This document shows positions 645 to 63,176 of a DNA stretch of 64,000 nucleotides, piece after piece (the stretch's first letter is position 1; each line of letters begins with the position of its first letter). Source of the DNA: Nannobrachium achirus (lineage: Eukaryota > Chordata > Actinopteri > Myctophiformes > Myctophidae); assembly GCA_963921795.1 (NCBI GenBank), contig OY997652.1, positions 56,265,338-56,329,337 on the forward strand, read 5' to 3'. The notes under the pieces were generated by a model. It did no database searches. It was not told the origin of the DNA and was given only the letters and a program-made list of their open reading frames with translations. Made by a program: the position numbers and the translations under genes.

Positions 645-708
645 GAAAAATAGCAGATATATAAACTCGAGAGTGCCGCGCTGCGAGCTTGTACATCTGC
701 TATTTTTG
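645..708. repeat. Short palindromic hairpin, GATCTGCTATTTT family
   Basis: AAAAATAGCAGAT at the left pairs with ATCTGCTATTTTT at the right around a GC-rich centre. This is one of at least ten copies in the window. Confidence 0.6.
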
Positions 709-1408
709 AAATCCCTGGCCCAGATGAAGAACATTCATGTGGGCCCGCAGTGAATCCTTGTACTCAGGGCCCAGAATTTGGTGCGACGACACCCTTGCTC
801 GTTTAGTGACTCGCGCGGCTAAAACTTTTCGGAATCGAGACGTTTTAACGCCAGAGATATCAAATGTTCTAGATTTATAAGCAATCGGCATGATAAGAAA
901 CATGTAGGCCTAGCCTACATTTGAAGCAGTTTATTCTGGTTGTTGTGAAATAAGAGAAATAGACAGAATAGGATACTGCCTTGTCTGCCTACCTCATTCG
1001 TCGCTAGGCTGTTTAAACACCATCATCACAGATCAAATAAATACATTAACACGCCGTTTAGGCGTCAAATTCACTGGTAGGTATATTTATTATATTTATT
1101 TGTTGTCTTTCTTACCTTATGTACACAACTGTCCAGTCCAGTGATAAGTTGCTTTATATCAGATGAAGTAGCCTATTCCTTGGTGCTTCTTCATATAAAC
1201 ACATACAATGTTTGTGTTGGTATAAATGAGTAGCCTACACATATTTTCTCAGTTCATATGACTTGATGAAAGTAACTCATATTCCGCCCCGGTCAATAAC
1301 ACTAATCATTATAATGGCATGAATCGATCTAAACAAATAAAGTCTGTGCTGATAATGATGATGGTAGTATGCTTATGGCTTATGTTAGGCAGGCCACTTA
1401 ATAGATAT

Positions 1409-1445
1409 ATAGATAGATAGATATCTTTATTATCCCAAGGGGGAT
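1409..1445. repeat. GATA-type microsatellite and retroelement-like tail
   Basis: Short ATAGATAG repeats are followed by CTTTATTATCCCAAGGGGG. This resembles the repeat-tailed 3' ends of fish non-LTR elements. No coding part was seen. Confidence 0.35.
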
Positions 1446-1448
1446 AAT

Positions 1449-1818
1449 CAGTAGCTATTTAACATAACAAATAAGGTGTTGATGTTATAGTCATGAGCCA
1501 TTTAGCCAATACAGTGTATTCATATTTAAATCTTTCCGAGTCAGTGTAAAACGGCTCTGAATCCAGCAGAGAACTTCTGTATTCTCTGCTGCTTTGTTTT
1601 AATAGGCCTACATATTTTTCTAATTTCATGCCAGGTCTTGTTGACGGATTTGGAAGAGATTTCGAGGCTCTGGGTCCAAAACGCGACATGCAGTGTGTCT
1701 GTGTGTGACATTCTCCTCCATCGTGCTGACAGTGTTGTTGAATGACTGAGTGAGGGCTGTCGGACTTCAAAGCAGTAACGTGGAGGGAAAGGTGGGGGCG
1801 GAGCTCCCGGTACTCGTC
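1449..1818 (-). repeat. Right arm of inverted repeat 71-492
   Basis: This is the inverted match of 71-492. The outer end (1811-1818) abuts the last recognisable codon of the BFAR-like RING exon. The arm is open in one minus frame (1459-1848), but the left arm does not preserve that frame, so I treat it as non-coding. Confidence 0.65.
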
Positions 1819-2108
1819 TTTGGGAATCCCTCCCACTTCTCTCGACACTCAGGACACTCATTCTTGCGTGAAGACTCCCACCACAGAGCCAGACAGTGAC
1901 GGCAGAAGTTATGACCACAGTTCAACGTTGTGGGGTTCACTAGTATGTCATAGCAACAGTGACACGAGAACTCGTGGTCTGAGATGATGGTGCTGCTGGC
2001 ACGGGTGGTCAGAGAGGATTCTGATGAATGGTCATTAGTTAATTCTGACGAGTGGTCATCGACTATAAATCCTGGACCGTCATTGGGTGAATCTCTCTCC
2101 ATCTGTCG
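1819..2108 (-). pseudogene. bfar: BFAR-like RING-finger exon, truncated
   Basis: BFAR (bifunctional apoptosis regulator) is an ER-membrane RING E3 ligase that restrains apoptosis. The minus-strand frame gives an acidic, Ser/Thr-rich leader and then a C3HC4 RING core: CHCCYDILVNPTTLNCGHNF, then CRHCLALWW and CPECREKWEGFPK. This is nearly identical to the vertebrate BFAR RING as I know it. A start at MERDSP follows CGACAG, which could be an acceptor; an in-frame ATG also lies slightly upstream, at 2118-2120. After GFPK the expected VSILLRDAI-type continuation is absent and there is no GT donor directly after the Lys codon; instead the reading enters the repeat arm at 1818. No SAM or membrane domain was found. 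It may be a truncated or captured exon, or a real first coding exon with a displaced donor. Identification of the domain is firm; functional status is not. Confidence 0.75.
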
Positions 2109-2331
2109 ATGATGCAACATTTCAGGTCCGCAGGTGAAAACATAATGTGGACAGACACTGTCATTAAAGGAGGAATGGAGAGGGATTAGTCTTACAAAAT
2201 ATAGATTAATGTATAGAGATTATATTATAGAGATTAATATTATAGGCCTATATTTTCTTGGGTAATATTTGTTAAAGTTACAGATCTAACATAACTAGCA
2301 GAAGAAGTTATATTAACGTGTTTTTTTTCAG

Positions 2332-2480
2332 GCCAAAACGCACCAATGCAACTAGTCGCAAATCTAACAAAACCGTTTTAGGCCATGTCACACCCCAATG
2401 CAACTCCTTGCAACTGCCATTGAGGATAATGGTTGCAAGTATTAGCATGTGGCAAGGAGTTGCATTGGTGCGGTTTGGCC
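2332..2480. repeat. Small MITE-like inverted repeat
   Basis: The terminal inverted repeats are GGCCAAAACGCACCAATGCA on the left and TGCATTGGTGCGGTTTGGCC on the right, with an internal second copy of the CAATGCAACTCCTTGCAACT block. Length is about 150 bp. No clear TSD was seen. Confidence 0.65.
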
Positions 2481-2489
2481 TTTACTCCG

Positions 2490-3180
2490 AGAGTGTTGCT
2501 TGCTATAACCCAAAAGACAAGGTTCCTACTTCCTAGTTACCACAGAGAGCCTAAATAGACTGGAACCTGCAAGGGGACCTGCACTTAGCAACATAAACAA
2601 TTCTAAATGTGTCCAAGTTTATTTCCTGTTGCAGTGTTTGAATATCAGTAAGGTTAGCTGACACTGACAGGAAATACATTTGGACCCAAGCTGTTCCCCA
2701 GCAATACAATTCCAATGACAATGTAATAAGATATATCATTAAGCCATTTAATTCTCAAAGTGAGGTCCAGGGCAGGGATCCCCAGGGTTCCTTGCTTGAG
2801 GGGGTCCAAATAGACCCTAACAAGACAAGTCTGGAACTCAGGTCACGATCATTTGGATAGAGACCCTCAGACTCTTCCGGAGGTCCTTGAAATTAAAAAG
2901 CTTGAGAGGCACTGCTTGTGCTTTCGTTTGAAGCTGGGCGTGGCGTAGTGCCTACTTGGTAAAGGTAAACGAAACTGGAAGACAACGTCATTCGCCCTCA
3001 TCAACAGTAGTTAATGCTTACCTTAATAGGAACTGCTCTTGAGCGGGGATAATCTGGAGGAACACATAACTATATTATCTAACTAAAGTACAGTATGCTT
3101 CGTGTAGAGTCTGTAGACCATCGCTAGAGCATAGCAAATCGCCAAATTAACCTTATCGCAGACAGAAACAGACAAGTGTA
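2490..3180. other. Unannotated stretch
   Basis: AT-rich anonymous sequence. No exon, RNA gene or repeat boundary could be supported. Confidence 0.5.
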
Positions 3181-3224
3181 CAACTGTCGGCCGCCATAGC
3201 TGCGCACTCTGCTTTGAAATGGAG

Positions 3225-3515
3225 AGCCCCCACGTACGACGGCGTGAATCAAAACACCATCCCGGTTCCAACCATGGACCAAGGGCGGAGCGAGTCGCCG
3301 TGTCGAGCGTTGCGAGGGTCGCATGAGCCGACTCAGCGCCGTTACCGACTTATGTGCCGTTATGGACAATAGTAAATCTTCAGCCCCCCGACTTTCGGCA
3401 CCTCCGCGCGGTCCAGGCGAACTCAACGGAGCGCTCCCTACCTCTGGTTCAGCCAATCACAAGCTTCCACTGCTGGAACCGGGATGGTGTTTTGATACAC
3501 GCTGTACGACCCAAC
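3225..3515. repeat. Foldback element
   Basis: The left block ATCAAAACACCATCCCGGTT (about 3247) is the inverse of AACCGGGATGGTGTTTTGAT (about 3478). Flanking GTACGACG and GCTGTACGAC blocks extend the pairing. The short ORFs in this segment overlap on both strands and follow from the symmetry. Confidence 0.6.
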
Positions 3516-3785
3516 TCTATGCGTACGACGCACACACGTAACAGCCTGTCACGAGGGCAGAGAGCTGCTCTCCTCATTGGCTAGACTCTTCAATGAAGAC
3601 CACGCCTACGAGATGAGAAGCCTGGGAACGAGCACGAGCAGCACATGAACGATCATAGTGAGTTACCCGCAAGCGTCGTCGACTCGTCGATATTTCGAAT
3701 AAATATCAAATAAAAATAATACAATTATTATTAGCCAAAAAAGTAGTACTGATGGTGGACAGTAAATAATTACATTGATTCTTTG

Positions 3786-3789
3786 ATTG

Positions 3790-3820
<31 letters not shown>

Positions 3821-3995
3821 AAATAGGCCTGCTTTATTAGAAGTTTGCATAGGAATTGATTGAAGAGTTTGTAATTGAAAAAAGAACAGTTTCATGACAG
3901 CACAAATCACTGGCACAAGGTCAACTAAAATCTCATATAACATTGAAAGACAGACAGACGGATAGAACATAGTAGGCTAATTTACATAGGATAAT
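3786..3995 (-). mobile_element. LINE 3' end fragment with (TCAA)n tail
   Basis: The sequence TTTATTAGAAGTTTGCATAG, then CAGTTTCATGACAG and ACTGGCACAAGGTCAACTAA, recurs at 8.7 and 32.1 kb. The element lies on the minus strand and ends in a GATTGATTGATT run, read as a (TCAA)n tail. The coding C-terminus is visible only in the 8.7-kb and 32.4-kb copies. Confidence 0.6.
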
Positions 3996-4429
3996 ATCAA
4001 TTAGCCTACAAAAGCAGAAAATGGGGAGAAAAAAGGGGGATTGGAACCATAGAGTTGATTGGAACTCGTAAATATTTTTTTTCTCTTTAAGATATCTAGC
4101 CACCTTTACCTTAGAGATGGAACTAAGGATTTAAATTAGGCGGTAGTTGCCAGGGTCAAGTTTACTACCTTTTTTGTGGGCCCAAAATGTGGGCCTATAT
4201 ACAGAAAGTAGGCTACAGTAACACTGATACATGGTCAATTTGAGTAAGCATTTTAGTTTTTTTTTTCTTTTTCTTCTTCTTCTTCTTCTTCCTTTTTTGC
4301 AAGACATATGACGTTGTACTCGATCCATTGCATTTCTAGGAAGGGATGTGGGACCCAAAACTTAAAAATATATTGTGAATTAACCACTTAAGCCTGATTT
4401 CAACAATCTTACAATACAAAGTGAAATTC

Positions 4430-4473
4430 ATCACATCGAGATGCACTTTGAGCTTGTAGATCTGCTATTTTCA
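4430..4473. repeat. Hairpin family, right half only
   Basis: TTGAGCTTGTAGATCTGCTATTTTCAC matches the family consensus in two adjacent blocks. The left half is absent. Confidence 0.5.
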
Positions 4474-4869
4474 CTATTTGAATATTTGTACAATAACAAT
4501 ACATTGAATCAATGCAACCATGGATGGTTAATCAATGCCATTGATTAACCAACCATGGTAGAACTGCACAAGCTATGAGATTGTTAAACAATCAGACAGG
4601 CTGTATACTGATGGCTCATCATGGCCGCTATAGGACCTGGGGATCGAACTGGAACCTTCCAAATGACAGCCATAAATGGTCCCATAATGTTCATTATAAG
4701 ATCACCATTTCTGCCTCACTTTGTGTCTTATAGAGGAAGGTCATGGACAGATCAGAACATCAGATCATCAAACACGATTTCAACCTTTTTTATGATATTC
4801 TTTTTATTAATGCAAGAGCAATGTCTTCTGTATGGTATGCTCTTACATTACAAAATGTAAATAAAATAA

Positions 4870-5140
4870 AAGGTTGAAATCTTTTTTGACGAAACCTGCT
4901 TAACGATGATGTAACTGACTGGTAGGCAGGTTTCTGAACTGTTCACAGTCCTCCTCTGAGACACAGACCAACACCTGTAGACAGAAATGGGGTTGCACCA
5001 GTGGAGTCAATGGGACAGTGAATATACAAATGGCCATAACTTTTTTTGCGATGTTTCCGGCAGAGCAGGCCTGTCATTCTGTGGACCTTAATGACCAAAC
5101 TAATAGATAAAACAGAAATAAAAAGTGCGGCAAAACATCA
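4870..5140. repeat. MITE-like repeat related to 25525-25860
   Basis: Shares CTGAACTGTTCACAGTCCTC and a following GAGACACAGA with the 25.7-kb copy (CTGAACTGCCCACAGTCCTC). The termini are diverged. Confidence 0.4.
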
Positions 5141-5929
5141 CAGGTTAAACCCTATTCCTTGAGCTTTTGGGCCTGTGGGTCCCCGACTAATATGGGGAGT
5201 TGTGTCAGGACCCAAGGAATCCAGTCGGTGAGAGGATTTCTTATTAGAAATATATTACCTCTTGTGTCAGTATGCGTTTGCAGGGTGTTGTATAATATGT
5301 GGACGTGGTATCTCGATAAGAGATAATTCCACACACTCTTGCTCATTTCTAAAAAGAAATACCACATATTGACTGTCTCGTATCCTATCCTAAGAAATCT
5401 GCCGGCTGTGAGCCGGCCTGGCTAGGAGGAGGAGGGAAAGGAGTGGAGATGGACCTTATTGGAAAGCTTTGAGCTGAAACACGAGTCCCCTGTATTCTGA
5501 GTAATATAGTGGAGATGAGCACTAAATGAAAAAGCCTTAGCGCTTGAAGACACGAATCCCCTTTATTTTGAGTAGACACTCACCCTTACTTATAACTACG
5601 TTCAAATCTGATAACTCACTGGCCTGTTGGCCCTTATGCCCCTCCTTAAGTTTGTTTCTCGTGTGTATAGTGAGTTATCGGATTCACTCGAGCTGACGCC
5701 TCACCTGTCCCCTGTGAAGAGAAGTAACGTTCATACTCACCGAGACCCTGTAAAAGCAAAGTATTGTTATTCTCCTTGCCCTGTGGAAGAAGAGTAACTT
5801 GCCCACCTACCTGCAAGAGAAAGCCCTATTCTGAAGCGTTCCACTCACCTTTTCTCTTAAAGGAACAGTCTGCTAAAACCCCTGAATCTACCTGCTCTGG
5901 TGAGCTACCTGAACGTTGCCCTATCTTAA

Positions 5930-5953
5930 AGGGGGGGGGGGGGGGGGGGGGGG
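5930..5953. repeat. Poly-G tract
   Basis: About 24 consecutive G residues. This is a likely assembly-length uncertainty. Confidence 0.8.
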
Positions 5954-6200
5954 AAGAAAGACTCTAGTATATGCCTCTGTGAAAAGAAGAAGACTATTTC
6001 AGTTTGCCTTTACTCTGAACATTTTATTTGACATTTGCACCGCTTCTTTCATTCTGTAAACAATACTGTGAATAAACGCACCTTATGGCTTGCACCTGCA
6101 ACTGTGTTGTGTAATGGTTTGGTCCAGTTAAACCTGTATTTGCCACAAATAGCATAATGGATCTGCCTGTCTGCCATTCATTGTTCATGTTCTTGTAGCC

Positions 6201-6590
6201 CCCACAGTTAGTACCAGCCATGAACCAGCGACAACAGCCCTGCTAATCGGGCTCAGCCCTATTAGCACGACTGGTTGTGTGTTGGACTGGCGAGTGGGAG
6301 TCCCGGGATCAATCCCCGCTTCCGCGCATCACTACAATCTGGCATTGTCGGCAGGATGAGGAGCGTGATATCCTCAAGTGAGGGACAGTTCCACGTCGTG
6401 TGAGGCGGTCCGCGGCGTGAAGTGTGAAGCGCGAGGGCGCGCTCTAAAGATCAGGGGGGTGATTGTATCCCCCACAGTTAGTGCCAGCCATGAACCAGCG
6501 ACAACAGCCCTGCCAATCGGGCTCAGCCCTATTAGCACGACTGGTTGTGCGTTGGACTGGCGAGTGGGAGTCCCGGGTTCAAAAGTATGC
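6201..6590. repeat. Tandem ~270-bp repeat with tRNA-like segment
   Basis: The block CCAGCCATGAACCAGCGACA starts near 6214 and again near 6484, a 270-bp period. Each copy continues into GTTGGACTGGCGAGTGGGAG and TCCCGGG(A/T)TCAA. This has the look of a tRNA A/B-box arrangement (a SINE-head relic). The second copy ends in a CA microsatellite. Confidence 0.55.
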
Positions 6591-6679
6591 CTTCAAAGCC
6601 ATCACCCAGAGCAGTTTGACACACACACACACACACACTCACACACACGCACACACACCTCTGCATAGACAGATGTCTG

Positions 6680-8560
6680 ACTTGTCCGTGTGCCTTTATT
6701 CCAAATAACGCAGCCATGCCCATATATGGCAGCCATTTTGCTACTAAGTTAATGAAATTCCACCCCGTTGCCACCACATTTCTTCAAGCTAAACGCCAAA
6801 ATGGTTTAAAATAAATGCGTTTATAAAGCGGATGTCTTGCCCGGGCCCCCCCACTTTCCTTTGCAGTCAAGTGAATAAGTCCTACTGTAAATCGAAATTA
6901 GTCAAAGCTTATCTAAGTCAGTTTCAGACTCTTATGGCATTTGAAGATTGTGGAAGAAAGAGTTGTCAGGCTTGAGTCTTGCCCACATATTGAGATCTAC
7001 CTCCTCCTCCAAGTCTGATAACGGGTACTGCACTAAGTATTTTGTCAACTGATACTGCAGCTTAAAATAAAACATGGCTTTAAGTTGCCTTCAAATTGCA
7101 TGAAAAGGCCCAGATAGAGGACTCTGGCGGACTGTAATCAGTGGCCTATGTTCCAGGAAAAGGAGCGATAGGCTAGTAAGTAAGTACATGAATACGTGCT
7201 TTGGAGGGTTTGTGCACTTGTCCAAGAATATATTTAGCCAAGAAATTATAACTAATCAAAGCCTTGAAATAACAAATATTGGCATACAATTAGTAGACGA
7301 ACAAAATAGGCCAATTTAAAGGGCCTTCATACAATATCTAAAAAGAAGGAGAAAATTGAAGAAGGACTGGTTATATTAGTTACCAAAACGTTGATCTTTT
7401 AGTGCAGAGGTGATTCAGTGTGTGATTCATTTTAATTACTTTTTAGGTGTACTTTTACTCTCTTTTGTACCACAGAAGAGAAAAGAGAGTAATGCAATTT
7501 GATATGTTGCTCTCAACTTCCCTTAATACAATCTACATCTGCCATAATCTGTAACACCGGCTTGATGGTCAGGACCATTTAGGGGTTTAGTGTCTTAATA
7601 TGATTAAAGAGGTAGGCTACTGTATATCAAACATTTGAAACAGACGGCAAAAAAATGATGGGCATACTGGCCCTAGCATCACCTATAGATTTGTACATTC
7701 CTGTTTTGAAGCGGAGAGAGTTCGACAAGTGACCGTTGCCATCTTTGATAGGGATGCCGCCAATGCCGCCATCATGGATCTCTGTGTCCAATTCTGTGTC
7801 CATATTTAAGAGGGTGGCGCTGGTGTTATACATATTGCCATGCCTCTATCCTGATTGCTGTGGTACTTTATTATCTATTTTACTTTAAATGGGACCATCA
7901 TTTACACACACTACATAATAAGTTAAATTAAGTATTTAGAACATTTTCATAAAGACAATGTTTTTTAGTGGGAAAGAGTGAGTGAGTACAATTATCTTCC
8001 CATAGACTATACAATCACACCTCTGAGCAATCAGTGCCTTCTCCTGTTGGCAATTATTAGATAGAATAGTTGGCTTAATTTTTCAGACTGGAAGCTGGAT
8101 TTTGACCTCTATGAGTGACAGACTGCACCATGAAATTCCAGTCTTAAAAGATGAGGCAAACACTTACAGCAGTCAAGATGTTGGTGAGGAAATGTAAGAA
8201 AAAACTAATCACACTTAATGCTGGTTTTGAGTGTATTGTGAAATACTTGGTGACGTTTGATCGACGACTGAGCAAAGAAATGTTTTACAGTTTTAAGGTA
8301 CAATATATAAAAAATATACAAATATGTAATTTCAAAACTGTAGGGAATAAAGATAATAAGAACAACTTTTTTCCAGTTTGGTCCAGATTGTGATGTGTCA
8401 AGTTGGAAACTTTAACTGTTCCGCCAGTTTCTAAGAAATCCTGCAGAAGTATAATCCTAACAAACCATATTATACAATGAATTGGCCAAACCTGTCATAC
8501 AGTGAAATAAACATAATAACTATAGAATGTGGAAAGGTTTTAGCATTTGTGGCGGCCCAG
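6680..8560. other. Unannotated stretch
   Basis: No supported gene. A minus-strand open frame at 7627-7833 has unremarkable composition, no homology I recognise and no splice context. The rest is AT-rich anonymous DNA. Confidence 0.45.
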
Positions 8561-8570
8561 GACTGGACAA

Positions 8571-8638
8571 TGAAGCTTATACCTAGTACCTAACAGGTAC
8601 TAGGTATAAGCTAGTAACAGCTTATACCTAACAGGTGC
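8571..8638. repeat. Short palindrome, repeated GCTTATACCTA
   Basis: AGCTTATACCTAGTACCT pairs with AGGTACTAGGTATAAGCT immediately downstream. A third GCTTATACCTAACAGGT copy follows. Confidence 0.65.
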
Positions 8639-8677
8639 ATCACTTTAAAGTATACAATACTTGCCATGTTTGTAGCT

Positions 8678-9045
8678 TGATTGATTGATTGAAGAATTTA
8701 TTAGAAGATTGCATAGGAAAAAGTTTCATGACAGTACAAATGACTGGTACACGGTCAACTAAAAGGAGATCCTAGTAAGCTTTTCAGCTTATTTACACAG
8801 AAACCACATTATGTTCATATTGAAAGACAGACGAATAGAACACAGTACTTTGCATAGGATATCATCAATTACGAAAAAATAAAAATAAAAGGTAAATAAA
8901 ATAATCATAAGAAGCAGATATTTACAGTGGAAAAGGGGAGGTGAGTTTTGAGTAGCAGCCGTCTGTAGGTGACTTTTCAGATTGATTTTGAAGGAGGTTA
9001 TGGATTTACTCTCCTTTAGGGCTTGCGGTTGGGTGTTCCACATGT
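8678..9045 (-). mobile_element. LINE 3' end fragment, ORF2 C-terminus
   Basis: The minus-strand frame 8789-9043 starts MWNTQPQALKESKSITSFK and continues INLKSHL. This is the usual last motif of CR1/L2/Rex-type ORF2 proteins (W-N-x-L-P ... F-K-x-x-L-K-x-H-L). Shared non-coding sequence and a (TCAA)n tail follow at 8678-8695. Homologous fragments lie at 3786-3995 and 32067-32462; the latter also preserves MWNALPQALKES. It is 5'-truncated, with no reverse-transcriptase domain. Confidence 0.7.
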
Positions 9046-9240
9046 TAGTGGTATAGCAAAAGAGCCAAAAAAAGGCTGAACGTGATTAGTGGAGCTGGTA
9101 CAGATACCTTTGAGCAAAGAATAATACATTGCTGCTTAGACCTCTTAGAAAAAAATCGAAAAGAAGTTTTGAAAAAGGAAAAGGTGACCGGAACAACATG
9201 TTGCTCTGGTCACCCCCTCTCTCCCAGGGTCAATGATTGC

Positions 9241-9690
9241 TCAGTTGATGACATCGGACTGACGAATCCTCCACTCCACATTGAAGCCCTTTGAGTTGTT
9301 AGGATTAGGACCACGGGGCTGCCTCACAATAACAAGGCGGGGACCACTGGCTTTGTCCAGGATGGTGCTCTTGACTCGATTCACCAAGCGATCAGGGCGT
9401 GGGGTTGCCACCAGACGATCGGGACACGGGTTCGCACATGGCCGATCAGGATGTAGGGTCGCCACCAGCTTCACTCTGTTGTCTTCATATGCAACGACCC
9501 CTGACTAAAGATCAGCTGACTTCTCCTTTCCCTTGCTAGGACTGGTATTCTTGGTGGAGGCTGCCACCACTTCCTTCTCCACTACACCTGCAGAACTGTC
9601 CTCCAACTGTGTGTGAAAAGACACAGTGCCCTTAGGCAGCTTCTTGATGCGCACTGCATGGTCACACTGCATGGTCAGCGGCCAAATCAA
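9241..9690 (-). pseudogene. csde1: CSDE1 (UNR) retropseudogene, internally deleted
   Basis: CSDE1 is a cytoplasmic RNA-binding protein with multiple cold-shock domains and a C-terminal SUZ-C motif. The minus strand reads DHAVRIKKLPKGTVSFHTQL and, a little later, SPSKGKEK, matching the middle of CSDE1. After an in-frame TAG at 9505-9507 the same frame continues [12 protein letters not shown], also CSDE1. It then jumps to the extreme C-terminus: [18 protein letters not shown], then RQPRGP and IRQSDVIN with the natural stop. Most sequence between the middle domain and the C-terminus is missing, and the VATxRPDRLV block is locally duplicated. The uninterrupted fusion of distant parts without introns suggests a processed copy with a later deletion. 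The identification rests on remembered human CSDE1 motifs and is strong; function is very unlikely. Confidence 0.85.
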
Positions 9691-10127
9691 GTTGGGCTCC
9701 CATCGACTTTAGTGATGAAAAGTGATGAGTCAGAGTTTTGTGGGTGCTGTGGTGACCCCGAAGGTCGCCGACTCGGGCGCCCTAGCTAAATCATTAGAGC
9801 ATGCCCTGAGCTACATCTGTGCAAAATGTTGCACTTTTAGACTGATTAGCACGAGAAAAAAAACCCTAAGGCCTCCGACTAACATGAATACTCACCCATA
9901 CGTGTATTGTTTTCTGAGGCCATTTCTAGCCCACGGAATGTTTTTTGTGCAAAACAAATGCCTGCAATGGATTCAGCATCATGACAAACCCCTAGTTAGA
10001 CCCCTCACATCCTCCTTAAATACCCAGAAAAAAAATCTTTTGGATTTCTTGTGTTTCAGGCATTAAGGGGTTAATAATAAAAAATGCTCAATGGATATCA
10101 CTGGTCATCATCTTGAATCCTTAAGAG

Positions 10128-10720
10128 GTGACCCCAAGCTACAAGAATCAGTTGAGAAAAAAACTTTTACAGGCGAATCCACGTTCACCCCCACGGCTCC
10201 CGGACTATAAGTCTCACCATGTCCACTCCTGCTCTCACCAGGTCCTGCGAAAGCTGGACCCTGACACCCACCCTGCAGAAGTACCTGGATGGTTGCTACA
10301 CCAGAATGCTACGAGCTGTTCTCAATGTGGACCAGAACATCCACATTACCAACAAGGACCTGTACAGGCAACTGCCGAGGCTCAGCAAGAAGGTAGCAGC
10401 TAAAGGAGGATGAAGTTGGCCGGCCACTGCCACAGACATTGGGAGCTACCGGCTCCTTTGGGAACCAACGCGCAGGCATCGATCGTGGACGCTCCGCGTT
10501 AACATATCCTGAAGAAGGATGCAGGAGCTGAAAGCTCTTCGGAGCTGGCCGGGAGTATGGAGAACCGGAAAGATTAGAGACTCCGATAGCTCGTCTGAGG
10601 ACGACCGAGAGAGAGGACATGTGCGTTGCACCAGACTTCAGCCCCAGACATTTCACTCAGGAGTGGTGGATTCTTGAGCCGCAATGGTACTGCAGGCTCT
10701 ACCTGGCCCAACAGTACTGA
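10128..10720 (+). mobile_element. Non-LTR retrotransposon ORF2 C-terminal fragment
   Basis: The frame 10219-10413 reads CESWTLTPTLQKYLDGCYTR, then MLRAVLNVDQNIHITNKDLY and LPRLS. The next frame continues as RRMKLAGHCHRH-like residues. This is the conserved region after the reverse transcriptase in many non-LTR elements (CETWTLT...LDG.YTRMLR...LY..LP). Frameshifts separate the pieces. A second, shorter copy lies at 28590-28960; both are followed by the 3' end of an Ig gene copy, so the element was carried in the segmental duplication. Confidence 0.75.
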
Positions 10721-11191
10721 AAGAACAAGTCACCTTTTACACGCTGGATTATCATGGCAATAGAAAAATAAAATAAAATAATGAACAATGAAAAAATACA
10801 TTCTTTAAGTTCGCGTGCACCACAACTTAAGTAACAAAAACATCTGGCTTGTCAAAATTTCATACGTTTTATCTTAAATAAAAAAGCCATGTTACAATCA
10901 ATGTGGTGTACAGATATTTGTTTCTTCTTGATTTAATATAGGGCTCGACTTGTGTGATACCACCTTACAATGATCTACTCCCATCTACTCCCCAAACATG
11001 TAAATCATATCTGATTGTCTGATTTACATTACAGCTTAAATAAATATTTTAAGGATAATATTATTAAACAAAATATTAAATATTTAAGAATACATTAAGA
11101 CAGTGGGCAGACCTTCTCCTTCTCTACAGTGCTGTACCTATTGAAGATCCAAACCATCACATGGCTACTTAAATATTTAACATTGATCTAT

Positions 11192-11553: not shown

Positions 11554-11574
11554 TTGATCTATTGGTACTTCGTA

Positions 11575-11762
11575 AAGTAAGCCTTGCCGACCCCCTGGAC
11601 ATGACGCTAGTATGTCGCAGGGACTTACCCCCAATCCAACCCTTGATGCTGAGTGCCAAGCAGGGAGGCACTGGGTCCCTTTAGTATGACACGACGAGGT
11701 TTGAACCCCGATCTCCCAGTCTCAGGGAAGACACTCAAACCACTAGGCCACTGAGCTGGTAC
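11575..11762 (-). mobile_element. tRNA-derived SINE with TSD
   Basis: On the minus strand it reads AGTGGCCTAGTGGTTTGAGT (A box region), then GGGGTTCAAACC (B box). A conserved body follows, with GCTTGGCACTCAGCATCAAG and GGTTGGATTGGGGGTAA, as in teleost V-SINE type elements. It is flanked by ATTGGTACTTCGTA on both sides (11561-11574 and 11763-11776). Paralogous copies at 29.7 and 33.0 kb have the empty site. Confidence 0.85.
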
Positions 11763-12475: not shown

Positions 12476-17697
<5,222 letters not shown>

Positions 17698-27999: not shown

Positions 28000-28322
28000 A
28001 CCACTTTTTTAGCTGAAACATTTTTTTTAGCTGAAGAACCATTTTTTTTTGCTGAAGAACCATTATAAAGACCATTTTGCAAAAGGTTCTTCAGAGAACC
28101 TTTTTTGACATGGTTCTTTGAGGAACCAGAAATGGTTCCTCAAAGAACCATTTTTTGATGGTTCTTTGAAGCACCTTTAATGGTTCTTTATCGAACCATT
28201 CGAATAAATGGTTCTTTAAAGAACCTTGGTGAAAAAGGTTCTTTGTGGAACCAAAAATGGTTCTTCTATGGAATCGCTCTGAAGAACCATTTTTGGTTCC
28301 AGTTGGAACCTTTTTTTTTCTG
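28000..28322. repeat. AGAACC/GGTTCT palindromic array
   Basis: Alternating AAGAACC and GGTTCTTT motifs recur in both orientations, more than a dozen in about 320 bp. Each pair can form a short hairpin. No coding content. Confidence 0.85.
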
Positions 28323-31117: not shown

Positions 31118-31174
31118 AGAAAATAGCATAGATCTACAAGCTCACAACGCGACTCGCCACCTCGTTGTGAGCTT
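31118..31174. repeat. Hairpin family copy
   Basis: AAAATAGCATAGATCTACAAG and CTCACAAC pair with GTTGTGAGCTTG across a GC-rich loop (GCGACTCGCCACCTC). Confidence 0.65.
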
Positions 31175-31621
31175 GACCCCAATGTAAACAAGCTGTTGGA
31201 TTTAAATCCTATTAGTAGATTTAACTTAACCCTGAAAATGTATCAGAACCACAGATTTAGTTTTAAATGGGCCTAAAAATTACAATCCAACCCTAACAGA
31301 CCCGGTGAGTTGAAGAAATCCAACCCTAACAGACCCAGTGAGTTGAAGCCCAAGCCCCCCGTAAACTCAAAATGAATTAATCTACTATAGGACCGGGTGA
31401 CCCGGACAGTGGACCATGTGCAAATGTCTTGTGCACGCTGCCAGTGGGTAAGAAAGTACTTCCATGCAATCTTTTCACGTTTATATTTTTTTATTAGACA
31501 GTCATGATTTGGAGGTTTTGTGGCATATTTTACAGTGTATTTACAAGTGTATTCTGCATCATAAAATAAGGAAATAAAGAAAATCACATTAGCTGCCAAA
31601 GAATTACAGTAAGTGTACGGT

Positions 31622-33619: not shown

Positions 33620-55458
<21,839 letters not shown>

Positions 55459-55543
55459 CGTGTTAAACAAACGTATGTAAACGACGTGTAAACTGACAGC
55501 AGAATGTTCACATTCACGCGTCGCGCTGCCTGTCGCACTCTGC

Positions 55544-55664
55544 TATTGGTGCTCAGGTGGTGCTCCTGTCCAATCCCCCTCATCTCCCGGCCCGGGGAAA
55601 ACAAACGAGACGGAAACAAACGAGACCACAGCGTTTGTTTTCCCCGGGCCGGGAGATGAGGGGG
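55544..55664 (-). promoter_or_regulatory. Ig gene 2 upstream region: CCAAT box and perfect hairpin
   Basis: A CCAAT on the minus strand (55544-55548) lies about 90 bp upstream of the ATG. Just beyond it, perfect 32-bp arms 55575-55606 and 55633-55664 (CTCATCTCCCGGCCCGGGGA within the arm) enclose a 26-bp loop. The promoter role is inferred from position; no TATA box is evident. Confidence 0.4.
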
Positions 55665-55699
55665 AGGAGCACTACCCGAGCTAGGGCTCTGCACCCGAG

Positions 55700-56900
55700 C
55701 ACCTTCTGTTGTGTGTGAACGTCAAACGTCATATCCGTTTTCAACGTCGTGCAGGCAGTACGGCAGTTCTACAAACGACGACAAGCTCACAACTGCTGCA
55801 TCTGCGACGCGACGTGAGCTTGTAGGTCTGTGTTTTTGGAAAAACGCGTAAAACATCAAAGCATCGACGATAGGCAGGCACCATATAGTCTACCTCCGCT
55901 TCGACGGAGAAAGTAGATCCTTTCGTCTAGAAACAAGTTGTCGTTCATTCATTCGTCTTAAACCGTGGGGCTTTGTTTTCCTGGGTGATCACTGACCAGC
56001 CCAGGTCGAATTGTCAAACTTGTCACAATTAATTGAATTGCGACACAAATAGACCTGCACTTTACATATGAGGTTCTTTTTCCTGTACTATAGTTTTGAG
56101 AACAAACGCTTAATAGCCAAAGTAACTGCAAAAGACTGCGGCTATTTGTTTCAAAAAGGCTTCATACCCTGAGACTTAATCGAGTTTGATATTGTAAAAA
56201 TAGCTGACAATAGGCCTAGCTCCAACTGTTTTTTATTATGTTGACGCTTAATTGCCTTCTTTGGCAAAGTATTCTCATTTGATTATAGGCTATTCTACCG
56301 GGTTAATAGGTGGAATAGCCTACAACATTATGTTTATGATGTTGTTAATCTAGCAAGCTAGTTGTGTTGAACTTTGAAAAGCTGAATGCTGACTGAGGAG
56401 ACATTATTTACTGAGGAGAGGAGACAGTATAGGCCCTATAGGCCTATTCCTCCCTTGTGTTAACTGGGTGGATAGTTTAGCTGTGCAAGGCTACATTTCA
56501 ACACCCCTTCAACAAAAATTGTTGCTAAATCCGCCCACGCTTGGCCTTCCTATATCTTTCATTTCTACAGTGTGTGTGTAGACTATTTCTAGTGTCTTGC
56601 ATTCGGTGGGTGGACAACAGAGACTCCTCTTCACAAAGCATTTTCATGGGAACTCTGCCTCGACCTCCATGCTGGCTTAGTCTAGTGGAATTTCTGAAAA
56701 ATCATGTGATTGTTAGGGGCATTTTGGGATAAAAGTTGGGAACCCGTCTATTTTACACAATTCAAGGGTGTTGAATCTGAAAAAAAGATCTTGCATAACA
56801 AAATAGCTGCCGAATTGTCAATTTTAAACTATTTCTTCAAGGGATATTTCACTTTCAAAACACCTTTAGTAATTTTATCGTCTAATCAAGCGTTTGGGAA
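55700..56900. other. Mostly unannotated
   Basis: Apart from one hairpin copy (55776-55837), nothing supportable. Confidence 0.45.
55776..55837. repeat. Hairpin family copy
   Basis: GACAAGCTCACAACTGCTGC pairs with ACGTGAGCTTGTAGGTCTGT; the loop contains CTGCGACGCGAC. Confidence 0.65.
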
Positions 56901-56902
56901 CA

Positions 56903-57938
56903 CCCAGGACAGTTTTTGAGTTGTTTGATTCAGTTTAGATTTAGACATTTGATATTCATTTCATCAGACACGCCCCCTTTCTATACAAACCCATTGTAAC
57001 TTCAAACTTTAACCTGAACATTTTAACCTGGATAGATTTAATGAAAACACCCGTCCTTTTTTTCTGGCGACTCCTGTCCTGACATCCTCCTAATATGTGA
57101 GCAGGTTGTGTTTTGTCAATAACATTTTTCCTTTTTTATATTTATAATTTCTTAATTGTATTTTTTTCTCCCAAATAATTATAGAAAATAAACTAAAAAG
57201 GTTATCGAAAGAACACTGCATATTTGTGTATTAAAAGGGCATCAGGAGTCACCAGAAAAAAAGATGGGTGTTTTCATTGAATCTATCATGGTTAAAATGT
57301 TTTATTTTTATTTAAAAGGGATATTTCACTTAAAGGAGTAGTTCACCACTTTTCAACCTGTCTTCATATAATAGGTCCTCACTAATGTTCATGATAAAAT
57401 ATCACAATTTTTTTCTACTCAGTCCAAGTCTGACCTGCCCACAGCCCTCCACTGAGAAAAAAAAAAGAAAAAATATATTTTTGAGTACCAATTATATGAA
57501 CATAGGTTGAAAAGTGGTGGAGTGCCCCTTTAAATACAAAAACATTGAAACCATGTTAGATTCAATGAAAACACCCATCCTTTTTTCTGGTGACTCGGAC
57601 TCCTGACGCCCTCCTAATACATGAACAGGCAGTGTTTTTTCGATAACTTTTTTAGTTTATTTTTTCATAATTATTTGGGAAAATGAAAAATAAATAAATA
57701 TAAAAAATTAATTAAAAATAAATGAAAGGAGTTATCGAAAGAACACGACCTGCTCACGTATTAGGAGCGCGTCAGGAGTCACCAGAAAAAAAGGATGGGT
57801 GTTTTCATTAAATCTATCATGGTTAAAATGGAGTTTGAAGTTACAATGGGTTTGTATAGTAAGGGGCGTGTCTGATAAAATGAATATCAAATATCTAAAT
57901 CTAAACTGAATCAAGCAACTCAAAAACTGTCCTGACCT
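56903..57938. repeat. Compound foldback element
   Basis: The outer arms match in inverse (AGGACAGTTTTTGAGTTG at 56908; CAACTCAAAAACTGTCCT at 57920; GATTTAGA(C/T)ATTTGATATT). Within them lie two smaller palindromic units (57017-57300 and 57540-57830), each with ATGAAAACACCC and GGGTGTTTTCAT ends, separated by a MITE at 57335-57530. Confidence 0.85.
57335..57530. repeat. MITE at the centre of the foldback
   Basis: AAAGGAGTAGTTCACCACTT at the left and AAGTGGTGGAGTGCCCCTTT at the right; related to 25525-25860. Confidence 0.75.
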
Positions 57939-57939
57939 A

Positions 57940-59060
57940 TAACTTCTATTTTTACCATATCAGAGGGAACTGAGCCAAACAAAATGTAATGCCTCAACAG
58001 TCCTCGTTTTCAAGATGATTAACCTTTGATATTGTGGATGTTTTTGGTTTGTTTTTCCTTCATCTTCTAGAAAACGATGCATTTATCACTGACGTGTGTG
58101 GTTCTCGTCATCACACATTTCACAGTGCAACTGTAAAAGAAAGGTAATTTGCAGAATAGCCTACATTCCCGAGGTATGCTACTGTAGTACGTTCTAGCTC
58201 TGAGTCTGAGCTCTTTATAATAATGAAAAAGTCGGAGACTGTCGCATACAGATGTATGCTGCCGCCTGCCTGCCTGTTTGCTGAATGTGAATGAAAAGCC
58301 GGGAACAGCAGTACAGCACATGCGCACACACCTGGAAGCTAGCAATGTTCAAGAACGCAAACCATACAGCCTATCGTTAAAGGGTTGTTAAAAAAGTGTT
58401 AACGTGTTGATTTGTAAATGTGTTGATCCTTTTAGCAGCCAAACCCATTGCGAGCTAATTTGCGTTTGCTTAGCCTACGTCTATGTATGTCTATAGGCCT
58501 ATAGCCTGCATAAAATACATTTAACCGTTACTAACTTCTGCTGGGGTGTGTTCAACAACGGTTAAACCAGTGCGTTGGTAGCGTTGTTAAATGAATAATC
58601 CAGGTTTATTTGTCACTACAACACAATTTGTCCTCATTGTAGGTACTAGGCCTATATTGCCTGCTACAATACTAATAAAAAGCAAAACGTAATAGGCCTA
58701 TGAGGGGAAAACGCATCAGCATGGGCATAGAGTAAAACATTAATATCGTTTGTTAGAAACGTTACCTGATCTGTGATTCACTCCGGTTTGCAACACTCCT
58801 ACTCCAACAACACTGATATATATTGGGATTATATAGCTAATATATAACAGCGATCCTAGAAGCAACTTTTGCTGTTAAACTGAGCCGTTGGTTCGGGGTG
58901 AGAGCCGTTGGAAAAGCCCGGTGTGCCGTGTGGTGCAAATGTGCCCGCCCGGGCTTCAGACTTCAGAGTTTAGATTGTGAGCTCCAATCAAAAGCCGCGT
59001 GAAAGCGAATACGCCCCTCTACCCAGTGAATATACGCTTGGTTTATTCAGAACCTCCCCC
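57940..59060. other. Unannotated stretch
   Basis: No exon or repeat supported. Confidence 0.45.
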
Positions 59061-59079
59061 TTAGACTTTTCTCTCCCCC

Positions 59080-59850
59080 TGGCCCAGGCTTTCTCCCGGG
59101 AGAGAGCCTGGTGTTCGTTCACAACTAGTCTCGCGTGGCCAGACGGTTGCCTCCGCGATTTGGTCAAATGCTCCCGGCATACAGTCTGGCAAACCGGGGA
59201 AGAAACGATGAGTGGCGAGATGAAGCGGAAGTGAAGCCCCCACGTCACTTCCGTTTCAGTCTCACATCACAAATATTTATCATTATATAAATAAAAATCA
59301 TATAAACATGTTTAGCTTGCTGCTTAGCAGAAATGACATTTTAAAATATATTCTTTTGAACGGTAATGCCCGTTTCCGATACTCGCCGTTCGGGAGCTGC
59401 TGTTCCAGACTCTATATAGCATTCAGAGATTGTGGAATAGTTGTCTGGCTACGCGAGACTAGTTCACAACAGACCGTTTGGTTTCCGCCTAAAGCGCGGA
59501 AACCACTAGAAGAAGCGGTGTCGCTTTGATTTGGTTCCCACCGTTTGTTTCCCCAATCCCTATTAAAATGCTCGAGTAGCCTAGTGTGGTTTTGCCGGTC
59601 GCTAAAAGTTGGACTAAAACATGCATATACCAAACTAATTTTTCAAAAGCAAAACTACTCCGCATCGAGGAGTTTATTAGGTAGGCCATAAAAGTATGTC
59701 CTTGAGCGCAGGGGAATTATTTTGGGTTAAAATGTTTCCGGTGGATAGTTCCGGACAAATTGTAGTCCTTGAGTACTACAACATGACGTTTTGTGGTTTC
59801 CGCTCCAGACCGGTTACAAACCCGAAAAGTGAAGTGATCCCAGACTAGGC
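59080..59850. mobile_element. TAACCTCGCC-family MITE, copy 3, interrupted
   Basis: CCAGGCTTTC ... GGTGTTCGTTCACAAC, then (after the 59126-59470 insertion and its TSD) AGACCGTTTGGTTTCCGCCT to GTGATCCCAGACTA. Colinear with 11192-11553. Confidence 0.8.
59126..59462. mobile_element. hAT-type MITE, 337 bp, exact TSD
   Basis: Ends TAGTCTCGCGTGGCCAGAC and GTCTGGCTACGCGAGACTAG. TSD TTCACAAC at 59118-59125 and 59463-59470. The uninterrupted relative at 11215-11245 gives the empty site. Confidence 0.92.
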
Positions 59851-60442
59851 CCCCGCTACTATCTATGGTCTGGTCTCACGTCTCAGCATTAACACCAGCA
59901 GATCATAGACACTGATCATCTGATCATCATACTCCTTCAATCTGCACCATCTGTTTGAAATGTGTTAACAATATCAGTCAAAGATATGTGCTTGTAGCGT
60001 GGGATAGGCTTAGATCCTCCTTGAGTAGTGCTATTTCCTCTACCGTTACATCTCAGAGCCAATTCAGCCAAATATATTGCTACCCCATGGATCTTGTCAA
60101 GATCCCCAAAAAATGATCTGAAAATGATCTGGCCACTTAAAATATTAATAGTAGCCTGAGTAAAGTAATGTCCAGATTATATGTAATAATAGCTTTATTC
60201 AGTTTTGACAAAATGCATCGAACAAAACTTGTTTGTCAAGAAATCAAATGTAGCCTAATTACACACAAACACCTTGAAAAGAACCAACACATCTACGATG
60301 GTACAATAATTATGAATAGTGTTAAAATGTGCTGCAGGAACACTTTTTGCCTTAATTGCTTTCAAATTACATTTAGGACATTCTGTGAATTCTCAATGTT
60401 ACAAAGTGATAAAATGAATTAAACAAAATAGATGGCTTAAAT

Positions 60443-60917
60443 TAGGGATGTCCCGATACCACTTTTTTGCTGACCGAGTACAAGTACGAGTACTTCATTT
60501 TGAGTACTCGCCGATACCGAGTACCGATACGAGTACAATTAATAATACAAAATGTCTTTAAATTACGTTTCTTTTTTTTCTTTTTTTTTATCAGATGTTC
60601 CTCACTTTCTGGCTGTATATAACACATTAAATTGCATTGCTTTCCCAGAACATGGAACAACTGCCACACATTTCATTTTTTTTTTCAGGTTTAGCCCATG
60701 GAAATTCCTGTACTGTGCATGATCTTCTAGATCTGCTATGCTCAAACATTTTGTATTTTTACTTTTGATACTTTAAGAGAGAGAGAGAAAGGCGAAGTGG
60801 CGGAACACACAGGGTACTCGGGCGCTTTGTGAGCAGTATCTGACGAGTACCGATACCGCAAAATAGGCCGGTATCGGGGCGAGTACCGATACCACGAGTA
60901 CCGATACCGCATCCCTA
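60443..60917. mobile_element. hAT-type MITE, 475 bp, exact TSD
   Basis: Starts TAGGGATGTCCCGATACCA and ends CCGATACCGCATCCCTA, with many GAGTACCGATAC internal repeats. TSD GCTTAAAT at 60435-60442 and 60918-60925. Confidence 0.92.
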
Positions 60918-61254
60918 GCTTAAATATCACTATCTTAGTGTGTACCTAACAATCTCCATCCAGCCTGGATCTCTCAGCCAGGAATCTCGATGAGTAATTC
61001 TACAGTATGAGTAATTCCACATGAAAAAAACTAAAAAAGCTAAAAAGCCACTCCAAAAAAAGCCAATGAATACGTCGCACTCTTTGGTTTAATTTATATG
61101 TAGTCGGACAACTTGTCACACAACCCTTTTGACAATTCCAACCATCTCTCCATGTAGAATTTATTGGGTAAGTGCGATATTTGGCCACACGGGGATGCTG
61201 TAACATAGAACAAAATGATGACTATATGACATTATTGCATACATCCAATATACA

Positions 61255-61574
61255 TACCACACTGGCAGCCCATCCATCTATCCATCCATCCATCCATATA
61301 CATCCATCCATCTTCAACCGCTTATCCGGAATCGGGTCGCAGGGGTAACAGCTCCAACTGAGATTTCCAGGGTTCCCTAACCTGACCAACTTCCTCCACT
61401 CCAGTGTGGAGATACAGAATAATCCTTCCATCTGGTCTTTGGTCTGCCGCGGGGTCTCCTCCCAGTGGGATGTGCCTCGAGGATCTTCCTAGGAAGGCGC
61501 TCAGGAGGCATCCGTATCACTTTTAATTGCAAAATAAATAAATAAATCCCATTAATGTTAATGGGGAGATTCAT
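61255..61574 (-). mobile_element. RTE/Rex-type LINE 3' end
   Basis: The minus frame has RMPPERLPRKILEAHPTGRR and PRGRPKTRWKDY, the terminal motif of many non-LTR ORF2 proteins. It ends in a (TGGA)n tail at 61264-61310 on the minus strand. 5'-truncated. Confidence 0.7.
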
Positions 61575-61599
61575 ACTTTTTGCTAAAAACTCAGTTCCA

Positions 61600-62680
61600 A
61601 CTCTACAACATTAGGCCTACTTAGGACACCTCGGCTTATTTGATTATTAAAAAATATATATATATTTCACTTTTAATTGCTAAACAATCCCATTCATTTC
61701 AATGAGGAAATGCCATTTAGTGTTATTTCTGGATAATGACCGATGAGCTCAATAACAGACCAGATCAAAGACTCAGAGCACTTGCAGCACTGCATGAATG
61801 TTATATGCCGTAGGCTACATGCCAACATGACAGCCATGCAAACAAACAAAGTGTCAACAGAATGTTGCTCTCAAGAATGTTTTTGAAAACATTTGAAGAT
61901 GCAGTAACCAAAATCGGATTCTATTTGATCAACACTTGAACCCACAGCTCGGTACACACAGCGCAGTGTTGCATTCATTTTCAACATGGTTATTATTATG
62001 TTATGAAAAGTGCTGTTTCTATAGAAGTGTGGCCGTTTACTGAGAAGGCAAGAGGGGCATCCCCTAAGCGCCTGCACATATACAGTATGGGCCATTGGCC
62101 CACCCACCTTCTCTTTGCACACTACCATCTGGAAGGAGGTTTCAGACACATAGGCCTACTGTATATGTTATGCATGTGACTTACTTGTGCACCGTATATT
62201 TATACACAATATAATTAAATAAGTAATATTTTAAACTTCAATTAAACTGGTGATTTAAATCAAGAGGGATTTGGTGCTTTGCATGTTGTAGATCCATTAT
62301 GGTGGTTTCTGTTAGTATGTGTGTGTGTGTGTGGGGGGGGGGGGGGGTCTTACCACATAGGAAATGAAAGCAGAGAGGTCTATAAAACTCTATGGTCTGT
62401 CCCTCTGTATGTGACAATGAACAATGTACTGTAGCTGTTAGCTGTCACTTTCAGTTGTTCATTTTATTTGAAGGATGACATTTGCATCAACCTATATAAT
62501 ATTATGTGAGTATTTTATTTAATTATGTCGTATTTAAAACAGTATTTTTTCCTTAGCACAGCATCAGAACACAAAATGTTAATTATGAAAGTGCTGGGGT
62601 TTAGTGTTTTTATCTGGAGTGAACAGAAGCCCATGTTGAAAATGGATCGTGAGTTTTAGATTTAATGTTATATTAGTCAA
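61600..62680. other. Unannotated stretch
   Basis: A GT/G microsatellite at 62318-62347 only. Confidence 0.45.
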
Positions 62681-62694
62681 CCTGGCTTTAAGTT

Positions 62695-62770
62695 GGGTAG
62701 CCATAGCTGAATGGGTAGACACTAGACAGTTCACCTGGGAAGCTGAAGATCTCAGGTTCAAGAATCATAT
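62695..62770 (+). repeat. tRNA-like relic
   Basis: GTAGCCATAGCTGAATGGGT (A-box-like) and CTCAGGTTCAAGAATC (B-box-like) with tRNA spacing. Probably a SINE head or tRNA pseudogene. Confidence 0.35.
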
Positions 62771-63138
62771 TTAATTAAAAAGTGCTCCTCAGAGCACAGG
62801 TCTCTGCCAGGTCAAGGAGGTTATATTTAGGAATCATGACTATAGATATCATTAGTACCAATTTGCATGCTGTTTGGATAAAATCTGTAGAAGTAATATA
62901 AAAATGGGCAATGTTTATTGAACTTTGCAAAGGGAAGGATTATTGAAATGAAAACTTAAAATCAAATGAACTGAACTATGAAATGAACCACTGACTAAAC
63001 CAAACTGAATCAAACTGAATCTATTAACATGAATACGAATAACCCTATAGTTGAGATGAGATCTATAGTGTTTCCCAAACACAACTTGGGACTCATTCAA
63101 ATTAGAATATTTCATAAATGTATACAACTTAAGAAATA

Positions 63139-63176
63139 GTGAAAATAGCAGATCTATATACAAACTCACAACAGGT
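63139..63176. repeat. Hairpin family, left half
   Basis: GTGAAAATAGCAGATCTATA then TACAAACTCACAACAGG; diverged, right half absent. Confidence 0.55.

What the first reader, a model, noticed from the sequence alone, without database searches (positions are those of the whole stretch)
645..63176. Recurrent ~55-65 bp palindromic hairpin, possibly an undescribed mini-element
A shared core, AGCAGATCTACAAGCTCACAAC paired with GTTGTGAGCTTGTAGATCTGCT and flanked by AAAA/TTTT, recurs at 645, 4430 (half), 16077, 31118, 34650-35000 (x3), 43611, 48004, 49798, 50952 (half), 55776 and 63139 (half). The loop differs but often holds GC-rich CGCATC/GCGACGCG. Copies lie inside and outside hAT elements and in both Ig genes, so they were not all carried by one larger repeat. 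The stem is conserved while the loop varies, as expected for a hairpin-propagating or fold-selected unit. I know of no named family with this core.
Basis: seen in the sequence. Interest (0 to 1): 0.8.

Follow-up and report, generated by a model that had tools for sequence, protein, structure and literature searches.

The report
Palindrome shared by many hAT transposons
A palindrome of about 71 bases that can fold into a hairpin occurs at an estimated half a million or more places in this animal genome, mostly as an inner part of several different families of small cut-and-paste (hAT) transposons; how one palindrome came to sit in so many unlike transposons is an open question.

Summary
The hairpin is real: 23 arm matches in the window score 15 or more, simulated windows at most 14. 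It is not special to the window: the 1.66-Gb genome holds 747,678 arms within 3 mismatches (control 91), and 200 kb of evenly chosen sequence holds 72 loci, about 0.6 million by extrapolation. The unit is a palindrome of about 71 bp with a 3-4 nt loop and sharp edges in 80 flank types.

It is not part of one transposon, nor shown to move alone. It sits inside at least seven families of non-coding elements with different ends; five show hAT-type ends and 8-bp duplications, one imperfect. The hairpin shows no target duplication of its own. Hairpin-less copies are mostly deletion remnants in F4 and C and ambiguous in F1. Hairpin divergence equals that of the flanks in F1, but is lower in F3 and F4, where sampling is biased.

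Best reading: a passenger palindrome spread by transposases acting on its hosts' ends. How unlike families acquired it is unexplained.

The parts
647..706 (+). hairpin, both arms, inside an F2-type element (about 560-798, degenerate ends CAGGTGCGTCACAAG / GGTGCGACGACACCC)
   Evidence: left flank type shared with other loci
4450..4471 (-). single arm; host element not identified
   Evidence: no repeated flank found in the 288-kb set
15960..16308 (+). host element A/F5, hAT-like ends CAGTGGTTCTCAACC ... GATTGAGAACCACTG; no target duplication seen
16077..16129 (+). hairpin in element A/F5 (variant ACATGCTC on both arms)
31120..31175 (+). hairpin, right arm cut short; flank found at only 3 places; a paralogous locus about 90 kb away (L072) also carries it in decayed form
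34657..34692 (-). hairpin 1 of a tandem array in element B (left end at 34562; likeness to Tol2 ends is recalled)
34803..34847 (-). hairpin 2 of the tandem array in element B
34958..35002 (-). hairpin 3 of the tandem array in element B
43611..43663 (-). hairpin in an F1-type element (F1 end at about 43675-43714, - strand)
48005..48070 (+). hairpin in element A/F5 (left end 47873); right arm interrupted by a Helitron-like insertion, TTTTCACAA follows at 48635
48071..48634 (+). Helitron-like insertion (TC...CTAG, between A and T) splitting the hairpin's right arm; second copy from about 17740
49586..52125 (+). host element C, TIR TAGGGCTGGGGCGGTAT (10 of 12 matched), 8-bp duplication GTTGTCTC, nested in hAT-like 47534-52622 (TIR 12 of 12, duplication CCGGTAAG)
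49799..49860 (+). hairpin in element C; of 40 scored C copies, this one included, 38 have the two flanks apart, 34 of them by exactly 62 bp
50955..50995 (+). half hairpin in a B-type element
55780..55837 (-). hairpin, left arm cut short; host element not identified
63142..63172 (+). single arm with a 4-base insertion; host element not identified

Best explanation
The hairpin is an old palindromic module (about 71 bp, longer in some families) built into several non-autonomous hAT families. It has no detectable means of moving on its own. Its copy number comes from hAT transposases acting on the outer inverted repeats of the host elements (shown: host ends and 8-bp duplications; inferred: mobilisation in trans). 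After insertion the palindrome decays and is shortened or lost by deletions at its apex or across one arm (shown in a few copies). How the same palindrome got into families with unlike ends is inferred: an ancestral hAT acquired it, and it passed to others by recombination or template switching during repair of hAT excision gaps.
For: Seven host families with distinct ends: F1 CAGGGGTCTTCAAC, F2 CAGGGGCGTCAC, F3 CAGGGGTTCCCAAAC, F4 TAGGGCTGTCAC, F5/A CAGTGGTTCTCAACC, B CAATGGTGGAAAAG, C TAGGGCTGGGGCGG. 8-bp duplications: exact in F1 (GTCAAGAG, TCCTAGTC), F3 GACTATAA, F4 CCTTACGG, C GTTGTCTC; 7 of 8 in F2. 84 of 104 hairpin loci in 288 kb have a match of 90 bp or more within 60 bp of the hairpin elsewhere in that set. 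Family variants are inherited: F2 inner stem AGCGCGGCAC/GTGCCGCGCT, F3 AGCACACAAC/GTTGTGTGCT, A ACATGCTC/GAGCATGT. F4: of 8 joined-length hits 6 were read; 5 keep hairpin remnants with different end points, 1 has an A-run there. C: 2 of 40 scored were short, one keeping AGCAGAT, one lacking flank too. F1 hairpin divergence equals its flanks. 150 scored hAT dimerisation-domain matches of 1,653 candidates.
Against: The conserved unit ends sharply at AAAAT/ATTTT in 80 flank types, as a mobile unit would. Seven of nine hairpin-less F1 copies read share the clean joint TTTGCTAAA and lie scattered in a poorly resolved, star-like tree, so they could be pre-insertion sites. The TIR-plus-8-bp test finds hosts for only 6 of 104 loci (5 elements) against 10 of 400 random places, and the window scan gave no more candidates around hairpins than at random places; only the exact pairs are taken. 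None of 4 coding hATs fetched shows the hairpin in the element, so no autonomous source is shown. 20 of 104 loci have no repeated flank in the set. Hosts A and B show no target duplication. Hairpins of F3 and F4 are more alike than their flanks (biased set).
Confidence: 0.6

Rival explanations
1. The 71-bp palindrome is itself a minimal mobile element, moved in trans, that inserted into hAT elements and other DNA many times and then rode along with their amplification.
For: Sharp symmetrical edges in 80 flank types; very high copy number; hairpin-less F1 copies with one clean joint, scattered in the F1 tree; exact 3-bp direct repeats at the edges in 9 of 49 hairpins against 1.9 expected.
Against: 49 full hairpins show little excess of direct repeats of 4 bp or more (6 against about 4.4 expected), and at least 7 of the 9 exact 3-bp repeats are F2 copies. 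No clean empty copy among those read in F4 and C. Unselected F1 copies mostly read GCC...GGC around the palindrome, so the clean joint also fits slippage between two GC. The hairpin at 31118 is older than a local duplication and gives no empty site.
Confidence: 0.22
2. The palindrome is a functional part of hAT elements (promoter operator, transposase or host-protein binding site, or a block to gap repair), kept by selection on source elements.
For: Stem changes on both arms between families (two-sided changes above all 200 shuffles at pairs 21, 25, 26, 28 and -4, -5, -7 among others); in B and F2 a TATAAAATA lies some 20 bp beyond the hairpin; hairpins more alike than flanks in F3 and F4 (biased set).
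Against: 0 of 4 coding hAT loci show it in the element; its distance from the detected left end varies (158 and 222 bp in F1, 192 in F3, 223 in F4, two hairpins per F2 element); shuffles ignore relatedness, so two-sided changes may be few events or quasi-palindrome correction; no excess conservation in F1.
Confidence: 0.13
3. Ordinary consequence of one long hAT lineage: all host families descend from one hairpin-bearing element whose ends and flanks diverged beyond recognition.
For: F1 and A have similar ends; F1, F2 and B share some sequence beyond the hairpin by eye.
Against: Ends of F4, C, B and F2 are unlike; the arms compared differ by at most 3 of 18 bases (as selected) while their flanks show no likeness, and in F1 hairpin and flank diverge equally.
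Confidence: 0.05

Closest known systems
hAT non-autonomous elements (MITEs)
   Same: Short, non-coding, terminal inverted repeats starting CAG/TAG, 8-bp target duplications
   Different: Several families with different ends share one internal palindrome
Angel inverted-repeat element inside Tol2 (fish)
   Same: A palindromic element nested inside a fish hAT; PMC8151067 (one figure-legend passage seen) places Angel inside autonomous Tol2
   Different: Letters were not compared here; from recall Angel is longer and unlike this core. Here the palindrome is in at least seven families
New inverted repeats formed during Ds (hAT) excision, PMC1978519
   Same: Passages seen propose that an atypical cut and hairpin processing next to a transposon end make a new inverted repeat; a possible origin of a first palindrome
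   Different: Does not explain the same letters in many families
REP/REPIN palindromes of bacteria (recalled)
   Same: Short abundant palindromes spread across a genome
   Different: Bacterial, moved by a Y1 transposase; nothing of the kind was tested or seen here

Membership tests
hAT superfamily (host elements) | terminal inverted repeats | tested here: met
   F1, F2, F3, F4, C by search; A by eye; B only the left end clear
hAT superfamily (host elements) | 8-bp target-site duplication | tested here: met
   Exact in F1 (2 copies), F3, F4, C; 7 of 8 in F2; not found for A and B
hAT superfamily (host elements) | mobilised by a hAT transposase | not testable with these tools
   hAT domains abundant in the genome; no partner identified
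independent MITE (the hairpin alone) | sharp constant ends | tested here: met
   80 representatives of 93 flank clusters
independent MITE (the hairpin alone) | target-site duplication of constant length | tested here: not met
   49 hairpins
independent MITE (the hairpin alone) | precise empty sites | tested here: inconclusive
   None clean among the 6 F4 and 2 C short copies read; F1 has a clean joint in 7 of 9, explained as well by deletion
Angel | sequence identity to Angel | not tested
   no Repbase/Dfam copy on hand; difference is recalled only
known structured RNA or miRNA family | match to an Rfam model | tested here: not met
   no match at gathering score in the window
Helitron | TC 5' end, CTRR 3' end, insertion between A and T (recalled rule) | tested here: not met
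   The hairpin lacks these by inspection; a separate Helitron-like insertion splits one copy

The most novel reading that the evidence does not exclude
A vertebrate counterpart of bacterial REP palindromes: a 71-bp perfect palindrome that propagates as such, without target duplication, through a hairpin or single-strand route, and has colonised at least seven hAT families and other DNA to more than half a million places.
Probability: 0.17. Interest if true: 0.88.

Novelty: new variant of a known kind. Interest (0 to 1): 0.6.

Why it matters
If the estimate holds, about one hairpin per 2.8 kb makes this one of the commonest short palindromes known from an animal genome (comparison from recall). 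Long palindromes are usually unstable, so so many copies caught at stages from perfect stem to remnant give a natural data set on palindrome deletion. Its sharing by unlike hAT families also makes a testable case of how non-autonomous transposons exchange internal parts.

Tried and rejected
Core in papers: none of the held papers holds any of three 14-mers and one 13-mer; topic searches listed no description of a palindrome shared by hAT families (listings only, except passages in PMC8151067, PMC1978519 and PMC5953449; PMC5953449 held nothing relevant). Rfam: none. Viral contigs: a 19-mer 0; an 18-mer 8 contigs, none with the exact second arm within 90 bases, taken as chance. Prokaryote contigs: 20-mer 0.

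A 5-bp duplication CAGAG at 43611 looked like the hairpin's own target duplication; rejected when the copy proved to be an F1 element and no general excess appeared. A 9-bp duplication TTTGCTAAA in F1 looked likewise; doubtful, because copies not chosen by that search mostly read TTTGCC...GGCTAAA. Promoter-operator idea: 0 of 4 coding hAT loci (only one of the four elements, in L065, was delimited; it has an arm outside its ends, the other three 5-kb stretches have none). Angel: set aside from recall, not tested. Segmental duplication as the cause of copy number: excluded. In one search the alignment of the two A copies is random outside about 15960-16150. Flank clusters (93) overcount families, since diverged members of one family can fall apart.

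Ascertainment: loci L009-L016 and L037-L040 came from exact hairpin matches; L017-L036 are evenly chosen (5.00-5.01 Mb of contigs 1-20). In one search, 4 of 7 F4 copies, 1 of 3 F3 copies and 3 of 7 F1 copies come from the exact-match loci. Joined-flank searches favour hairpin-less copies and score only 40 candidates (of 361, 1,105 and 1,077), so they give no frequency.
Full report
The window is 64 kb of a 1,658,514,493-base assembly in 564 contigs.

OBSERVATION. A full copy reads, from the outside in, AAAATAGC AGATCTACAAGCTCACAACGCGTCGC, a loop of about 3 bases, and the reverse complement. Of 32 arm pairs in 200 kb, 24 have exactly 25 bases between the 18-nt arms. Single-stranded folding of two complete copies is extreme (DNA -37.8 and -45.9 kcal/mol, z -12.0 and -15.7 for L024 and L032; RNA -56.2 and -68.0) and weaker for four window copies (DNA: 49786-49872 -19.8, z -4.9; 645-708 -15.1, z -5.6; 48004-48071 -23.9, z -8.3; 31119-31174 -12.3, z -4.8).

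ABUNDANCE. A 17-mer of the arm with up to 1 mismatch occurs 238,087 plus 237,491 times, control 0 and 1; a 20-mer with up to 3 mismatches 373,660 plus 374,018 times, control 44 and 47. In 200 kb taken at 5.00-5.01 Mb of contigs 1 to 20 there are 104 arms (3 mismatches or fewer), in 32 pairs and 40 singles, so 72 loci, or about 0.6 million by extrapolation; the sample is small and clustered. Perfect inner stems CACAACGCGTCGC-N0-8-GCGACGCGTTGTG: 3,388 places, control 0. The window's density is ordinary for this genome.

HOSTS. In 288 kb (sample, L009-L016 and window) there are 170 arms with at most 4 mismatches against 2 in reversed sequence, in 104 loci; 84 of these have a match of at least 90 bp within 60 bp of the hairpin elsewhere in the set, 20 do not. 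The flanks fall into families with different outer ends: F1 CAGGGGTCTTCAAC, about 440 bp; F2 CAGGGGCGTCAC, about 555 bp with two hairpins; F3 CAGGGGTTCCCAAAC; F4 TAGGGCTGTCAC; A/F5 CAGTGGTTCTCAACC; B CAATGGTGGAAAAG; C TAGGGCTGGGGCGG. A search for inverted repeats plus 8-bp duplications found hosts for 6 of 104 loci, against 10 of 400 random places: F1 TCCTAGTC and GTCAAGAG, F3 GACTATAA, F4 CCTTACGG, all exact, and one F2 element, 7 of 8, counted twice as it holds two loci. Other duplication lengths (5, 6, 7, 9, 10) gave 2, 1, 2, 0, 0 of 104 against 4, 3, 8, 3, 0 of 400. Statistically this is a weak enrichment; the individual elements are convincing. C in the window has GTTGTCTC (whose overall number of candidates was not above random). 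In the window, 643 is F2, 16077 and 48004 are A, 43611 is F1, 34.6-35.0 k and 50952 are B, 49798 is C. Four sites, 4430, 31118, 55776 and 63139, are unassigned. The flank of 31118 was found only at itself, at a 90%-identical locus about 90 kb away and in one 38-bp match (the tool warns that common words are skipped); the paralogue also carries a decayed hairpin, so it is no empty site.

IS THE HAIRPIN ITSELF MOBILE? For: taking one arm from each of 93 flank clusters (80 with an arm within 3 mismatches), conservation runs ATTTT outward from the core and then drops (information 0.81, 0.33, 0.05 at positions 5, 6, 7), so the unit ends sharply at about 71 bp. Against: among 49 distinct full hairpins, direct repeats of 4 bp or more near the edges number 6 against about 4.4 in shuffled pairings; exact 3-bp repeats are in excess (9 against 1.9), but at least 7 of the 9 are F2 copies. 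Hairpin-less copies were sought with joined flanks. F4: of 8 joined-length hits 6 were read; 5 keep hairpin remnants with different end points and 1 has an A-run there. C: of 40 scored candidates 38 have the flanks apart, 34 by exactly 62 bp and the others by 57, 60, 65 and 67; of the two short ones, one keeps AGCAGAT and one lost 8 bases of flank as well. F1: of nine read, seven have the joint TTTGCTAAA (one aligned with a shift), two are remnants. That clean joint could be a pre-insertion site or slippage between the two GC of TTTGCC...GGCTAAA, the form of most F1 copies not chosen by this search. A tree of 24 F1 copies is star-like; the hairpin-less copies need 6 changes against 6.2 in shuffles, and one origin is not ruled out by well-supported branches. 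F1 stays ambiguous.

SELECTION ON THE FOLD? In 38 distinct complete hairpins, several stem pairs show more two-sided changes than all 200 shuffles, mostly because each family has its own symmetrical variant; shuffles ignore relatedness, so this counts few events, and other pairs (such as 8) pair no better than shuffled. Some families extend the palindrome outward with their own letters (6 of 49 by 8 or more bases, 2.3 expected). Mean pairwise identity, left flank, hairpin, right flank: F1 (7 copies) 0.889, 0.881, 0.876; F4 (7) 0.849, 0.947, 0.871; F3 (3) 0.862, 0.907, 0.854 (gaps ignored). F1 shows no extra conservation; F4 and F3 do, but 4 of 7 and 1 of 3 of their copies come from loci picked for exact hairpin matches. 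Quasi-palindrome correction or selection on source elements could explain the symmetry between families.

SOURCE. hAT dimerisation domains are plentiful (150 scored of 1,653 candidates). Four coding loci (5 kb each) were fetched; three have no arm at all, the fourth (L065) has one outside the delimited element 1381-4828 with duplication CTACTTAT. No autonomous carrier is therefore shown.

CONCLUSION. Shown: a very abundant palindrome with sharp edges, carried by at least seven families of non-coding elements, five of them with hAT hallmarks, eroding by substitution and deletion. Inferred: amplification by hAT transposases, passage between families by recombination or gap-repair template switching. 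Open: the original source and whether it ever moved on its own. Literature searches listed no account of it, in an open-access library only.

Noticed in passing
window 48071-48634 and from about 17740: Helitron-like element (TCTATACTATAATTTTGCG...AAGGGCTAG) inserted between A and T; at 48071 it splits a hairpin arm exactly.
   Followed up: partly
window 47534-52622: 5.1-kb hAT-like element (duplication CCGGTAAG) containing an A element, a Helitron-like element, a C element and B-type pieces: a nest that gives relative ages.
   Followed up: partly
window 411-1523: Inverted repeat ATGAATACACTG...CAGTGTATTCAT flanked by ATTTAAAT on both sides, enclosing the F2 copy at 643.
   Followed up: no
L012:595-737 and L071 (C1:3,708,000): The hairpin arm has become a tandem repeat: 25-bp units with AGCTTGTAGATCTGCTGTGACTTAC and 45-bp units with AGATCTACAAGCTCACATCATGTCAGTGTGTGC.
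   Followed up: no
window 36304-38811 and 38802-41303: Tandem duplication of 2.5 kb at 98.9% identity.
   Followed up: no
window 12897-13921 and 41880-42936: Duplicated stretch at 92% identity.
   Followed up: no
window 49868-49881: GTTACCATAGTAAC, a palindrome close to an RFX/X-box site (recalled), beside the C-element hairpin.
   Followed up: no
window 28101-28315: Cluster of GGTTCTTTGAGGAACC palindromic repeats.
   Followed up: no
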